Positions 3,837 to 7,440 of a stretch of 64,000 nucleotides of DNA are shown here, one piece after another. Both the position numbers and the translations under genes were made by a program. Location of the stretch: contig BQJD01000011.1 in assembly GCA_021604525.1 (NCBI GenBank), forward strand, positions 1-64,000. The letters are read 5' to 3'. The notes below the pieces were generated by a model. The model searched no databases, had not been told where the DNA came from, and saw only the letters and a program-made list of their open reading frames with translations. Within the stretch, counting starts at the first letter, position 1, and each line of letters starts with the position of its first letter. The DNA is from a marine bacterium B5-7. Its GTDB lineage: Bacteria; Pseudomonadota; Gammaproteobacteria; Arenicellales; CAJQKF01.

Positions 3837-4811
3837 TTATTCGGCCAGGCTGCCACCGCAACTGCTGCCGGTGCCAGCGGTACAACCGAAACAATGATCG
3901 GCGATTGCTACGGGTCGGTTTTCAAGGAATGCCGCATCGATATCCCAAAGTGCTGGTCGTTTGTGACCATGGGGTAACGGCATGTCCAGCATCTGGTTAA
4001 AGTCGCAATCATATAAATAGCCCTGCCAGTCGACGCTCACGAGGTGGCGGCACATCAATCCGGAAATGGTGGAGGGGTTGAATGCATCTACCAATAGGTT
4101 CTTGTAACTCTCTAGCTGATCGTTGTTATTCAAATATCGCTTGAACCGGTTAATTGGCAAATTGGCCAGCGCAAACAGTCGGTTAAAAACGATGCCGTAT
4201 CGACTTGCCAGCTCCTGTTTGTATTGTCGTTCGAGGGTGTCTTGGGGAGGCGGTAGAAAAGCGCCAGCCGGGTTATAGACGAGGTCGAGCGTTGGACCTT
4301 CTGCGCTGCCGTATCCACGCGCGTTTAATCGCTTGAGTGCGGTGATACTTTTTTCGAACACACCCTTACCGCGTTGCCCATCAACATTTTCCTGGCTATA
4401 GCATGGTAGTGAGCAAACCAGAGGGATCCTGTGGGTAACATACCAATCGGCCAGATCTTCAAACCCCGGTTCTTCAAGTATCGTCAGGTTACAACGTACC
4501 ATAACCCGTGCGTTCAACTGCAGAAGCTGTTCAACAAAATGTCGAAACCCCGGGTTCATCTCCGGTGCGCCGCCGGTTATGTCGATATCCGATATCTTAT
4601 TCTGCGCACACCAATTGACGATTCGTGCCATGGTATCCCGGCTCATGATTTCGGTGCGCTTTGGACCGGCATCAACGTGACAATGCTCGCAGGCCTGATT
4701 ACATAATCGTCCGGTATTTATTTGCAGTGTCGAAAGCGTAGCGCGCTTTAGCGAGGTAATTCCGTGCCTTGTCAACTGGCGACGAAACATCGCCGCGGAT
4801 GATTGCGGCAT
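3837..4811 (-). CDS. arsS: Radical SAM protein of the ArsS family (DUF3641 C-terminal domain)
   Basis: A radical SAM enzyme. The cluster motif is CNQACEHC, followed by GGAPEMNPGF, the usual SAM-binding element. The C-terminal part has the Cys-rich DUF3641 features: SGLMCRHLVSVDWQGYLYDCDF and CFGCTAGTGSSCGG at the end, typical of auxiliary Fe-S cluster ligands. The family is named for arsenosugar biosynthesis (ArsS makes 5'-deoxyadenosyl-dimethylarsine-oxide-type compounds), but no arsM or other ars gene is nearby, so the arsenic role is unproven here. It follows the buf/DoxX genes on the same strand but lies behind a terminator hairpin. The start at 4811 has an AGGA 5 nt upstream; an ATG at 4847, 12 codons earlier, has no ribosome-binding site. 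The length of 324 residues is normal for the family. Confidence 0.8.
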   Translation of the reverse strand: MPQSSAAMFRRQLTRHGITSLKRATLSTLQINTGRLCNQACEHCHVDAGPKRTEIMSRDTMARIVNWCAQNKISDIDITGGAPEMNPGFRHFVEQLLQLNARVMVRCNLTILEEPGFEDLADWYVTHRIPLVCSLPCYSQENVDGQRGKGVFEKSITALKRLNARGYGSAEGPTLDLVYNPAGAFLPPPQDTLERQYKQELASRYGIVFNRLFALANLPINRFKRYLNNNDQLESYKNLLVDAFNPSTISGLMCRHLVSVDWQGYLYDCDFNQMLDMPLPHGHKRPALWDIDAAFLENRPVAIADHCFGCTAGTGSSCGGSLAE

Positions 4812-4861
4812 TGATATCCTGATTGTCGTGTTGACTGCTTTATTCATTGGCTTTATGACTC

Positions 4862-4897
4862 AAAAAACGGGGACGCCGCCTTGCGAACGGCATCCCC
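4862..4897 (-). terminator. Rho-independent terminator after the doxX-like gene
   Basis: On the minus strand, GGGGATGCCG pairs with CGGCGTCCCC (10 bp, one G-U pair) around a 9-nt loop. This is followed after one base by six T residues (A-run 4862-4867 on the plus strand). The hairpin lies 22 nt after the DoxX stop codon and before the radical SAM gene. It separates that gene from the buf operon, or lets it be transcribed only by read-through. Confidence 0.75.
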
Positions 4898-4919: not shown

Positions 4920-5348
4920 TTAATCGGTACCCATGTATCGCTTGCGGATCAGATGGTCGATAGACAACTTGCCGGGTCCATGGAGAAACGGCACCAGCAA
5001 CATGATTCCCCACATGATGTGCTGCTGAACGCCCGCCGGGTTGAGTGATGGATAGGAGACAACCGCAATAATGTTGAACACGAACAGCACACCTGCGGAG
5101 AATCGCCCTGCCAGCCCAATGGCTAGTAATGTGGGGAATATGAGTTCGACTCCGGTGGCGAGATTGGCGGCAATATCCGGGGGCAGAAATGGAACCGCAT
5201 ACTCGTTTTCAAACAGCATGCGGGTGATGTCCATGGATTCAAACTTGTTCATCCCGGATTTGAAGAACACATTGGCAACCCAGAGTCTTAAGGCAAGATC
5301 AGAGACAGGCGCGAGGAACTCGAGCATTCGTATGGTGGATTTAATCAT
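4920..5348 (-). CDS. DoxX family membrane protein
   Basis: A small integral membrane protein of 142 residues with four hydrophobic segments: around residues 15-30, 55-80 (IAANLATGVELIFPTLLAIGLA), 80-100 (FSAGVLFVFNIIAVV) and 108-125 (MWGIMLLVPFL). It has the DoxX motif ALRLWVANVFFKSGMNKF near the N-terminus. The biochemical role of DoxX proteins is poorly defined; members are often encoded with DUF692/DUF2063 genes, and some are linked to quinone or thiol redox reactions. The ATG at 5348 has AGGGAG 8 nt upstream, better than an upstream in-frame ATG at 5420 that would overlap bufC. It lies 19 bases after bufC and ends the operon before a terminator. The role in the cluster is inferred: possibly redox coupling at the membrane. 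Confidence 0.85.
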   Translation of the reverse strand: MIKSTIRMLEFLAPVSDLALRLWVANVFFKSGMNKFESMDITRMLFENEYAVPFLPPDIAANLATGVELIFPTLLAIGLAGRFSAGVLFVFNIIAVVSYPSLNPAGVQQHIMWGIMLLVPFLHGPGKLSIDHLIRKRYMGTD

Positions 5349-5367
5349 TGGCAAGACTCCCTGATTG

Positions 5368-6213
5368 TTATTGCGACAAGTTGTTAGTGGGTTGTTGTGA
5401 AGAAAGTGCGTCCGGCGCATCGCAAAGGCTGAAGCCCGTTATGTTGTGGCGCAGAAATTGTTGCGACAAGGCATTGGATAAATCAAATTCTGTATTTACT
5501 TCACAGCCTGCGGCAAAGCATTCTGCCAGCGACAAACCGCTGATCATCGATTGCACAAAACGATACTCTGCATCACCCATGTTCTGAAACTCCATTTCGT
5601 TATCACGTCGCGCGACCAATACATTTTCGCCGCCGGTGTCGATATCGAGAGTACGGTCGTCATCAGCCTCGTTGATGGCGAACCGCCATATGTTGGTGAT
5701 GGGATAGCGAGATGATATGGCCATCGACGCTGGATGAAAATGAAATCGGATCGAGTCGTATTGATCAGGTTCTATATCTGCTTCTGCTAAAGCATCGAGC
5801 GTGATGGGATTATCTTCAACGGCATGAAACACGATGTGATAGCCCCACTCGAGTCGTGCAATATCTGCAAGATATGGCAGCGACCGGGTTTCAGGTAGTG
5901 AATCAACCAATTTATCGAAATTATCACCGAATGTATGCAAGTCCCCACATGTAGACGGTGATGATTCAATATACCGGCGTGCCAGCATCTTGAAAAAGTC
6001 ATCACCGACTATTTTTACCACGGCAGGATACGTTGCCTTGAGTGATTCGGTCAGGCTCGCAATCATGTTGTTGCGATAGACATTGAGCCGACGTTCAGCG
6101 GGAAGACCATGAGTAACGATTTGGTCTCTCAATGCAGGCGAAGTCGAAGTCGGATCGAATAACGCGCGCCGGAAACTTTGTTGAAACTCACGCAGCGTTT
6201 GCACGGACTTCAT
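5368..6213 (-). CDS. bufC: DUF2063 domain protein, BufC-like partner of the MNIO enzyme
   Basis: 281 residues with the DUF2063 N-terminal domain (FQQSFRRALFD, then ERRLNVYRNNMIASLTESLKATYP) and a C-terminal domain containing IARLEWGYHIVFHA and WRFAINEAD. Family knowledge: DUF2063 proteins are encoded directly after DUF692 enzymes and act as partners that bind the precursor peptide or the enzyme during RiPP maturation. The start at 6213 (MKSVQTLREF) overlaps the end of bufB by 26 bases, indicating translational coupling. A longer reading frame back to 6276 would overlap more and adds residues not typical of the family. No cofactor motif is visible. Confidence 0.85.
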   Translation of the reverse strand: MKSVQTLREFQQSFRRALFDPTSTSPALRDQIVTHGLPAERRLNVYRNNMIASLTESLKATYPAVVKIVGDDFFKMLARRYIESSPSTCGDLHTFGDNFDKLVDSLPETRSLPYLADIARLEWGYHIVFHAVEDNPITLDALAEADIEPDQYDSIRFHFHPASMAISSRYPITNIWRFAINEADDDRTLDIDTGGENVLVARRDNEMEFQNMGDAEYRFVQSMISGLSLAECFAAGCEVNTEFDLSNALSQQFLRHNITGFSLCDAPDALSSQQPTNNLSQ

Positions 6214-7063
6214 CCATAATGGCATCGGCACGACAGGCATGTTCAACCAGTACTTCGAGATCCGGAAGATCGACATCCCATTCGATTAAACTCGGTACCG
6301 GACCAAGACGGTTGATCGCATGTCGATATAACGACCATACATCATCCGACACTGGCTGGTTATGACTGTCGATCAACAGGCTGCCATCGTCAAAGCGGTT
6401 TTCGACATGTCCCGCCAGATGGATCTCGCAAACATGGTCCGCATTGATGCGATCTATATAAGCGTATGGGTCGAAGCCGTGATTGCGAGCACAAACATAC
6501 ACATTATTAACGTCAAGCAGAATGCCTGAACCACTACGCATGGCGAGTGTGTTGAGAAAATCCGTTTCGGTAAACTCCTGCTCTTCAAAGGTGAGATAAG
6601 TCGATGGATTTTCCATGAGTATGGATCGCTTCAGTACGTCCTGGGTATGCTGTACTCGCGCGATAAGATGATCGAGGCTCTCCTTTGTGTAGGGAAATGG
6701 AAGAAGATCATTCATGAATATGCCATCGACAGAAGACCATGAAAGATGCTCGGATATAAGCCCCGGTGCATATTCATCAATGAGTTCTGCTATGCGTGCA
6801 AGATGATTCTCATGGATTGGATCAGTGGACCCAAGTGACAGACCAACGCCGTGGAAACTGACCGGATAATGCGCTCGCAGTCGCTTTAAATAATGGTGTG
6901 GCAGTCCGCCACGACCGAAGTAGTTTTCGGTATGTACTTCAAGCCAGCCAACGGCAGGTCGTTCATCATCCATACTGACATAGTGCTCGCCACGAAGGCC
7001 GATCCCGGCTGAAGCCGGGATCGACACACTCGAGTGCTTCATGTCATCGGACATGAAATTCAT
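6188..7063 (-). CDS. bufB: MNIO family RiPP-modifying enzyme (DUF692), BufB-like
   Basis: A multinuclear non-heme iron-dependent oxidative enzyme of the DUF692 family, TIM-barrel fold, related to MbnB and TglH. In bufferin systems it oxidises Cys residues of the precursor, giving thiooxazole-type groups. Family motifs are all visible in order: GIGLRGEHY, EVHTENYFG, FHGVGLSLGS, SEHLSW, LLPFPYT, ENPSTYLTF, LLDVNNVYV, IHLAGH and LIEWD. The conserved His, Asp, Glu and Asn residues in these motifs are the expected iron ligands. The length of 291 residues is usual. The start is 9 bases after the bufA1 stop, so the two are one transcript. No good Shine-Dalgarno is seen; alternative ATG codons lie at 7054 and 7042. 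Confidence 0.92.
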   Translation of the reverse strand: MNFMSDDMKHSSVSIPASAGIGLRGEHYVSMDDERPAVGWLEVHTENYFGRGGLPHHYLKRLRAHYPVSFHGVGLSLGSTDPIHENHLARIAELIDEYAPGLISEHLSWSSVDGIFMNDLLPFPYTKESLDHLIARVQHTQDVLKRSILMENPSTYLTFEEQEFTETDFLNTLAMRSGSGILLDVNNVYVCARNHGFDPYAYIDRINADHVCEIHLAGHVENRFDDGSLLIDSHNQPVSDDVWSLYRHAINRLGPVPSLIEWDVDLPDLEVLVEHACRADAIMDEVRANAA

Positions 7064-7072
7064 GGCATGACT

Positions 7073-7333
7073 TTACGAGGTCGGCTCTAAGCTTCCGCCA
7101 GCGAGTTTTCCACAAATGCCTTTGGGGAGATAGACCCAGGCATCGGTCTGATTATCTGACGTGGAGGTGCCGGCACATGAACTCGTACTGGTCTGGCAAT
7201 CGTTTTTACCGGCTTTGGCGACACCGTAACACTTCTCGTTGTCTCCGGCGGCTTGTGCCTGCATTGCAGTGGTAGCGCCGAATGCAATCAGGCTACCGAT
7301 GGCGGCGGATATAGCGAGTTTTGAGTTTTTCAT
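7073..7333 (-). CDS. bufA1: Bufferin-type RiPP precursor, DUF2282 (BufA1-like)
   Basis: 86 residues. Residues 1-28 form a Sec signal peptide: MKNSK, a hydrophobic core, and an AQA|AG cleavage site. The mature part has the DUF2282 signature EKCYGVAKAGKNDC, then SSCAG, then LPKGIC. Cysteines are at 35, 46, 53 and 74. In bufferins the signal peptide serves as leader, the two central Cys residues are converted to thiooxazoles, and the outer two can form a disulfide; the product is exported and binds copper. The ATG at 7333 has GAGGA at a good distance (7340-7344 on the plus strand) and is preferred to the GTG one codon upstream. It is the first gene of the operon. The assignment to this family is strong; copper binding is inferred. 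Confidence 0.9.
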   Translation of the reverse strand: MKNSKLAISAAIGSLIAFGATTAMQAQAAGDNEKCYGVAKAGKNDCQTSTSSCAGTSTSDNQTDAWVYLPKGICGKLAGGSLEPTS

Positions 7334-7366
7334 CACGATTCCTCAAGTATTTAGTTGGGTTTGTGT

Positions 7367-7382
7367 TTTCCCCATTGGGAAA
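7367..7382 (-). repeat. Hairpin in the bufA1 5' leader
   Basis: TTTCCC at 7367-7372 and GGGAAA at 7377-7382 form a perfect 6-bp inverted repeat with a 4-nt spacer, about 35-50 nt upstream of the bufA1 ATG. If transcription starts near 7405, this is in the untranslated leader. It could be an operator or an mRNA hairpin. Confidence 0.4.
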
Positions 7383-7411
7383 GGATCAAGCAAATTTACG
7401 TGCTTGTGGCT

Positions 7412-7440
7412 TATGACTTCACTGTCATGAAAAAGTTTCC
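7412..7440 (-). promoter_or_regulatory. Candidate ECF-sigma-type promoter for the buf operon
   Basis: On the minus strand GGAAAC (7435-7440) is followed after 17 nt by GTCATA (7412-7417). This resembles the GGAAC / GTC pattern of ECF sigma factor promoters. It would give a leader of roughly 70 nt before bufA1. A 5-bp inverted repeat ATGAC-N6-GTCAT overlaps the -10 region. Known buf operons are controlled by ECF sigma factors, but no sigma/anti-sigma pair is in this window, so this is only a candidate. Confidence 0.35.

What the first reader, a model, noticed from the sequence alone, without database searches (positions are those of the whole stretch)
4920..7440. Bufferin-type RiPP operon: exported Cys-containing precursor, MNIO enzyme, DUF2063 partner and DoxX protein
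Four tightly packed minus-strand genes encode a DUF2282 precursor with a Sec signal peptide and four Cys, a DUF692 enzyme with all family motifs, a DUF2063 protein overlapping it by 26 bases, and a DoxX membrane protein. Family knowledge: MNIO enzymes modify Cys residues in precursor peptides, and bufferins are copper-binding peptides that help tolerate excess copper. The product of this particular precursor is not known.
Basis: partly seen in the sequence, partly recalled or inferred. Interest (0 to 1): 0.8.

Follow-up and report, generated by a model that had tools for sequence, protein, structure and literature searches.

The report
Copper-buffering peptide operon, bufferin type 1
This is a standard four-gene operon for a secreted peptide whose cysteines are probably chemically altered so that it can mop up excess copper; the type is known, and the main addition here is a probable stress-type promoter in front of it that also sits in front of a protein-repair gene pair (msrPQ).

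Summary
In detail: four packed minus-strand genes, bufA1-bufB-bufC-doxX (7333-4920). Profiles place all four: DUF2282 (84 bits), MNIO (344.6; NCBIfam BufB 374.8, cut-off 310), DUF2063 (77.8), DoxX (55.4). The BufC model best matches the solved MNIO partners TglI and NGO1945. The system is known: DUF2282 occurs in 77 of 274 sampled genomes of the class.

(1) A promoter-like motif, GAAACTTT-N14-GTC, lies 106 nt before bufA. In 2.1 Mb of related loci all 14 matches precede buf operons; in the window's own genome a second match precedes msrPQ. In two same-genus genomes the syntenic site precedes buf2ABC-msrPQ. Pairing such operons with periplasmic methionine sulfoxide reductase under one ECF sigma factor is known in Caulobacter and, by my reading, Neisseria and Haemophilus; the motif here differs from those I found published, and the genome has no NrsF. 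(2) A radical-SAM gene (arsS) directly downstream looks like a fifth operon gene and is linked in 22 other genomes of the order, but it also sits beside nth in 13 loci without buf, and a terminator separates it. I read it as inherited synteny.

Verdict: new member of a known kind.

The parts
7415..7439 (-). ECF-type promoter-like motif GAAACTTTTTCATGACAGTGAAGTC, followed by ATAAGC; starts 106 nt upstream of the bufA ATG
   Evidence: Exact match to GAAACTTT-N14-GTC; aligned and conserved in G002 and G003; all 14 matches in 2.11 Mb of relatives' loci lie before buf operons; also before msrP in the same genome.
7073..7333 (-). bufA1, DUF2282 bufferin precursor, 86 aa; Sec-like signal peptide about residues 1-29; Cys35, Cys46, Cys53, Cys74
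   Evidence: PF10048 84 bits; the four Cys are invariant in 10 aligned sequences; signal peptide by inspection only.
6188..7063 (-). bufB, MNIO (DUF692) modification enzyme, 291 aa
   Evidence: PF05114 344.6 bits; NF050167 374.8 bits, cut-off 310; solved relative 3bww E=1e-42; conserved His/Glu/Asp positions invariant in 13 sequences.
5368..6213 (-). bufC, DUF2063 plus RRE-type MNIO partner (PME-type 1), 281 aa; start overlaps bufB by 26 bases
   Evidence: PF09836 77.8 bits; model pLDDT 91.8; best PDB matches TglI 8hi7/8hci and NGO1945 3dee.
4920..5348 (-). doxX, DoxX-family membrane protein, 142 aa
   Evidence: PF07681 55.4 bits; NF050144 HvfX 66.7 bits, below its cut-off of 80.
4869..4897 (-). 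Intrinsic-terminator-like hairpin (12 pairs, then GTTTTTT) after doxX; end of the operon
   Evidence: separates doxX from arsS.
3837..4847 (-). arsS-family radical SAM gene (TIGR04167), a neighbour, probably not part of the operon
   Evidence: TIGR04167 444.3 bits, cut-off 300; beside nth also in loci without buf.

Best explanation
The region is a Buf1-type bufferin operon. Inferred working: an ECF-type promoter at 7415-7439 switches on bufA1-bufB-bufC-doxX under envelope copper or oxidant stress. BufC binds the precursor through its RRE-type domain and BufB, a multi-iron oxidase, converts the two central cysteines (Cys46, Cys53) to copper-binding thiooxazoles in the cytoplasm. The peptide is then exported by Sec, the outer cysteines (Cys35, Cys74) form a disulfide, and it chelates excess copper in the periplasm; DoxX has an accessory, unproven redox role. 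The same promoter type serves msrPQ, which repairs oxidised methionines in periplasmic proteins, so the two form a small shared stress regulon. Shown here: gene families, gene order, conserved cysteines, partner fold, motif conservation and position. Inferred from studied relatives: modification chemistry, copper binding, disulfide, inducing signal, identity of the sigma factor.
For: Pfam and NCBIfam hits for all four genes. Four Cys invariant among relatives. BufC model 91.8 pLDDT, top PDB matches TglI (E=1e-6) and NGO1945 3dee (E=7e-5). BufB aligns over most of its length with 3bww and over large parts with TglH and MbnB. Same operon in many relatives. Promoter motif: 14 of 14 matches in 2.11 Mb precede buf genes; 11 of 23 matches in 10 whole genomes precede buf precursors and one precedes msrP, while reversed-pattern controls give 11 in all. 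hibadh/GNAT-promoter-(buf2ABC)-msrP-msrQ-moeB synteny in G000, G001, G002. Published: C. vibrioides Buf1 chelates copper by thiooxazoles (PMC12452194); sigma-F controls two buf operons and YedY (PMC3511200).
Against: No chemistry or expression data for this organism, which is held as a draft assembly of 119 contigs. The motif count in the own genome alone (4) is not above the reversed control (5); the case rests on position and conservation. Some buf operons of the order lack the exact motif (for example L095, L104, L107-L109). The sigma factor was not identified, and no NrsF gene is present.
Confidence: 0.86

Rival explanations
1. The operon has a fifth gene: the ArsS-family radical SAM enzyme acts on the bufferin or on the same metal or metalloid stress.
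For: arsS lies directly downstream on the same strand, and buf is next to arsS in 22 loci of the order and in G113 and G230 of another order. In G318 and G307 buf and arsS stay together away from nth and rlmB.
Against: In 13 loci of the order without buf, arsS is still next to nth, so the neighbourhood predates or outlives buf. A strong terminator separates doxX from arsS. arsS passes its cut-off in 135 of 274 class genomes, against 77 with DUF2282. The published survey found additional conserved genes only in extremely low proportions (PMC12452194).
Confidence: 0.07
2. It is a Buf1 operon whose main job is another stress (gold, chromate, hypochlorous acid), copper being secondary.
For: The shared motif with msrPQ points to oxidant stress. 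gig operons respond to gold and copper (PMC5413113); the sigma-F regulon responds to chromium and cadmium (PMC3511200).
Against: The one Buf1 studied in depth binds Cu(I) and Cu(II) and helps growth in excess copper (PMC12452194).
Confidence: 0.15
3. The conserved motif is an operator or another element, not an ECF promoter (a rival to the regulatory part only).
For: No sigma factor has been tied to it; no NrsF in the genome.
Against: Two blocks at fixed spacing, a -35 like GGAACTT/GTAAC and a -10 beginning GTC, starting 67-146 nt before the start codon, as in known ECF promoters (PMC3511200, PMC2893595, PMC8315932).
Confidence: 0.2

Closest known systems
Caulobacter vibrioides Buf1 operon CC3254-CC3257 and the sigma-F regulon (PMC3511200, PMC12452194)
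   Same: Precursor-MNIO-DUF2063-DoxX order; exported DUF2282 precursor with four Cys; the regulon also includes the YedY (MsrP-type) molybdoenzyme.
   Different: Caulobacter has sigF and its anti-sigma gene beside buf and promoter GTAACC-N16-CGAA; here no NrsF in the genome and the motif is GAAACTTT-N14-GTC.
Gold-induced gig operons of Cupriavidus and Legionella (PMC5413113)
   Same: Bufferin clusters under another name (PMC12452194).
   Different: Different lineages; Legionella gig expression was tied to RpoS, not to a motif like this one.
Neisseria sigma-E (NMB2140-2145 plus msrAB) and H. influenzae RpoE2 regulons (PMC2893595, PMC7907618)
   Same: One ECF sigma controls periplasmic methionine sulfoxide reductase together with an operon that, by my own knowledge of these loci, encodes MNIO-type proteins; RpoE2 also controls a DoxX-like gene.
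   Different: Precursor of the oxazolin/EGKCG type, MsrAB rather than MsrPQ, ZAS anti-sigma, Neisseria promoter GTMAGBWTT-N12/13-CGTCTAAH.
Captophorins (PMC13097082), DUF2282 group
   Same: MNIO plus PME1 partner plus DUF2282 precursor.
   Different: The captophorins characterised in that paper are Lys-Cys (EGKCG) types, not DUF2282.

Membership tests
Buf1 bufferin gene cluster | DUF2282 precursor with four conserved Cys | tested here: met
   PF10048 84 bits, cut-off 22.4; Cys35, 46, 53 and 74 invariant in 10 sequences
Buf1 bufferin gene cluster | Sec signal peptide on the precursor | tested here: inconclusive
   Basic start, hydrophobic stretch and AxA-like cleavage region by inspection; no signal-peptide predictor was available
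Buf1 bufferin gene cluster | MNIO of the bufferin-maturase family | tested here: met
   NF050167 374.8 bits, cut-off 310
Buf1 bufferin gene cluster | MNIO metal-site positions present | tested here: inconclusive
   His/Asp/Glu positions H71, H106, E151, D184, H215, D232, H234, E261, D263 are invariant in 13 BufB sequences, most shared with 3bww, TglH or MbnB; individual ligands were not checked in a structure
Buf1 bufferin gene cluster | DUF2063 plus RRE partner (PME-type 1) | tested here: met
   PF09836 77.8 bits; model matches TglI and NGO1945
Buf1 bufferin gene cluster | Order bufA-bufB-bufC, often with doxX | tested here: met
Buf1 bufferin gene cluster | Thiooxazole on the central Cys, copper binding | not testable with these tools
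   Needs mass spectrometry and metal binding
Buf2 bufferin | Six (or twelve) Cys precursor, NF050166 | tested here: not met
   27.7 bits, cut-off 60; four Cys
HvfABCX oxazolin system | HvfC and HvfX equivalogs, EGKCG repeats | tested here: not met
   HvfC 30.2 bits (cut-off 142), HvfX 66.7 (80); no EGKCG repeat
ECF16 (sigma-F/NrsF) controlled buf cluster | NrsF anti-sigma gene and GTAAC-N17-CGAA promoter | tested here: not met
   No NrsF in the genome; the conserved motif is GAAACTTT-N14-GTC

The most novel reading that the evidence does not exclude
In this gammaproteobacterial order a sigma factor outside the ECF16/NrsF group, acting at GAAACTTT-N14-GTC, controls a tiny regulon of bufferin operons and msrPQ. 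Together with Caulobacter (and, by my reading, Neisseria and Haemophilus) this would mean that bufferin plus periplasmic methionine-sulfoxide repair is a conserved response unit placed repeatedly under different sigma factors.
Probability: 0.5. Interest if true: 0.45.

Novelty: new member of a known kind. Interest (0 to 1): 0.3.

Why it matters
The operon itself adds one more bufferin system from a poorly sampled lineage. The shared promoter with msrPQ, and the presence or absence of buf2 between that promoter and msrPQ in sister genomes, links bufferins to oxidant repair and gives a testable, minimal regulon. The arsS result shows how an apparent fifth operon gene can be inherited synteny.

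Tried and rejected
ArsS as a tailoring enzyme: strong linkage at first sight (22 loci) but arsS stays beside nth without buf; kept as a rival at 0.07. A linked NrsF regulator: none in the genome. Standard sigma-70 promoters: no hit upstream of bufA, and fewer hits than shuffles overall. Rfam elements around the operon: none. Wider use of the motif in the own genome: four matches, not above the reversed control (5); one is inside a LysR gene and one is 156 nt before an OmpA-like gene, which I leave undecided. PDB sequence search with BufC found nothing; the fold search did.

Full report
Observation. The four minus-strand ORFs are present as described: bufA1 7073-7333, bufB 6188-7063, bufC 5368-6213 and doxX 4920-5348. 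bufB and bufC overlap by 26 bases if bufC starts at the ATG at 6213. Pfam places each gene over its cut-off: DUF2282 84 bits, MbnB_TglH_ChrH 344.6, DUF2063 77.8, DoxX 55.4. NCBIfam calls BufB an MNIO family bufferin maturase (374.8 bits, cut-off 310); the precursor fails the Buf2 model (27.7 against 60), and BufC and DoxX fall below the HvfC and HvfX cut-offs. So this is Buf1, not Buf2 and not the Haemophilus-type oxazolin system.

Parts. The precursor has a signal-peptide-like start (by inspection) and four cysteines (35, 46, 53, 74) that are invariant in ten sequences, with a block close to EKCYGVxKAGKNDCQTxxSxCAGTS. In Buf1 the two central Cys are modified and the outer two form a disulfide (PMC12452194). 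BufB matches 3bww at 1e-42 and also TglH and MbnB; His, Asp and Glu positions typical of the family are invariant in 13 sequences. The AlphaFold model of BufC (mean pLDDT 91.8) has its three best PDB matches in TglI (8hi7, 8hci) and NGO1945 (3dee), the known partner proteins of MNIO enzymes.

How common. The own genome (4.41 Mb, 119 contigs) has one MNIO and one DUF2282 gene. In a sample of 274 genomes of the class, DUF2282 occurs in 77 and MNIO in 170. Thousands of Buf1 precursors are described (PMC12452194). The operon is therefore an ordinary member.

arsS. Directly downstream is a radical SAM gene of the ArsS family (TIGR04167 444 bits). Searches of 109 genomes of the order followed by tblastn on 60 fetched loci show buf next to arsS in 22 loci of other genomes. 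That looked like a fifth gene. The control overturns it: 13 loci of the order without buf have arsS beside nth all the same. The simplest account is a stable locus rsxB-nth-[buf]-arsS-rlmB-rnr in which buf is present or absent. A 12-pair terminator-like hairpin lies between doxX and arsS. Two loci (L101 of G318, L104 of G307) keep buf and arsS together without the nth and rlmB flanks, which leaves a small opening for a functional tie.

Promoter. Aligning the upstream regions of the three same-family operons showed GAAACTTTT-N13-GTCWTA as the best conserved stretch. The reduced form GAAACTTT-N14-GTC matches 14 times in 2.11 Mb (both strands) of the loci then held, and all 14 lie upstream of a buf operon, including two loci from another order. 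These loci were chosen because they hold buf or arsS, so the density is enriched by design, but the positions are not. In ten whole genomes there are 23 matches against 11 for the reversed pattern; twelve lie before buf precursors or msrP and account for the excess. Spacing and shape resemble ECF promoters: GTAACC-N16-CGAA for Caulobacter sigma-F (PMC3511200), (T/C)GTAAC-N17-CGAA for ECF16 (PMC8315932), GGAACTT with TCAAA for E. coli sigma-E as quoted in PMC2893595. The -10 differs from ECF16, and the genome has no NrsF.

msrPQ. One of the four own-genome matches lies 99 nt before msrP (Oxidored_molyb 109 bits), followed by msrQ (Ferric_reduct 67 bits) and a ThiF-family gene. In G001 and G002 (same genus) the same site, between the same GNAT gene and msrP, is followed by buf2A-buf2B-buf2C-msrP-msrQ-moeB; in G002 the region is split over two contigs and the join is inferred. 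The window's genome thus has the promoter and msrPQ without buf2, and buf1 elsewhere under a promoter of the same type. Sigma-F of Caulobacter controls two buf operons and YedY, which I take to be MsrP (PMC3511200); Neisseria sigma-E and Haemophilus RpoE2 control msrAB together with operons that I know as MNIO-type (PMC2893595, PMC7907618). The pairing is thus known in kind; a different promoter for it in this lineage is, as far as I could find, not described, but the literature search was limited to an open-access library.

Verdict. A new member of a known kind, with a regulatory inference worth a simple test. Interest 0.3.

Noticed in passing
L139:6273-7988, L141:7415-9106, and other genomes of genus g3 in the same order: MNIO and DUF2063 partner fused in one reading frame of about 540-580 aa; open frames of this length recur in some 17 genomes, and Pfam finds both domains in the two I checked. 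The survey I read (PMC12452194) does not mention this fusion where I searched it.
   Followed up: partly
L018:2590-8704, L021, L022, L172:2645-6902: buf2ABC present between a conserved promoter-like site and msrPQ-moeB in G001 and G002, absent at the same place in the window's genome.
   Followed up: yes
L101:7560-8623: Tandem bufA genes; the first encodes a C-terminal extension ending CSTC, adding two cysteines.
   Followed up: no
L151:273-1416 (G000 contig 43): A match to the promoter motif 156 nt before an OmpA-like gene; may be a third target or chance.
   Followed up: no
window 3837-4847: ArsS-family radical SAM gene with Cys rather than selenocysteine in its C-terminal motif (CFGCTAGTGSSCGG); the family is over its cut-off in 135 of 274 class genomes, which sits oddly with an arsenosugar role.
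   Followed up: partly
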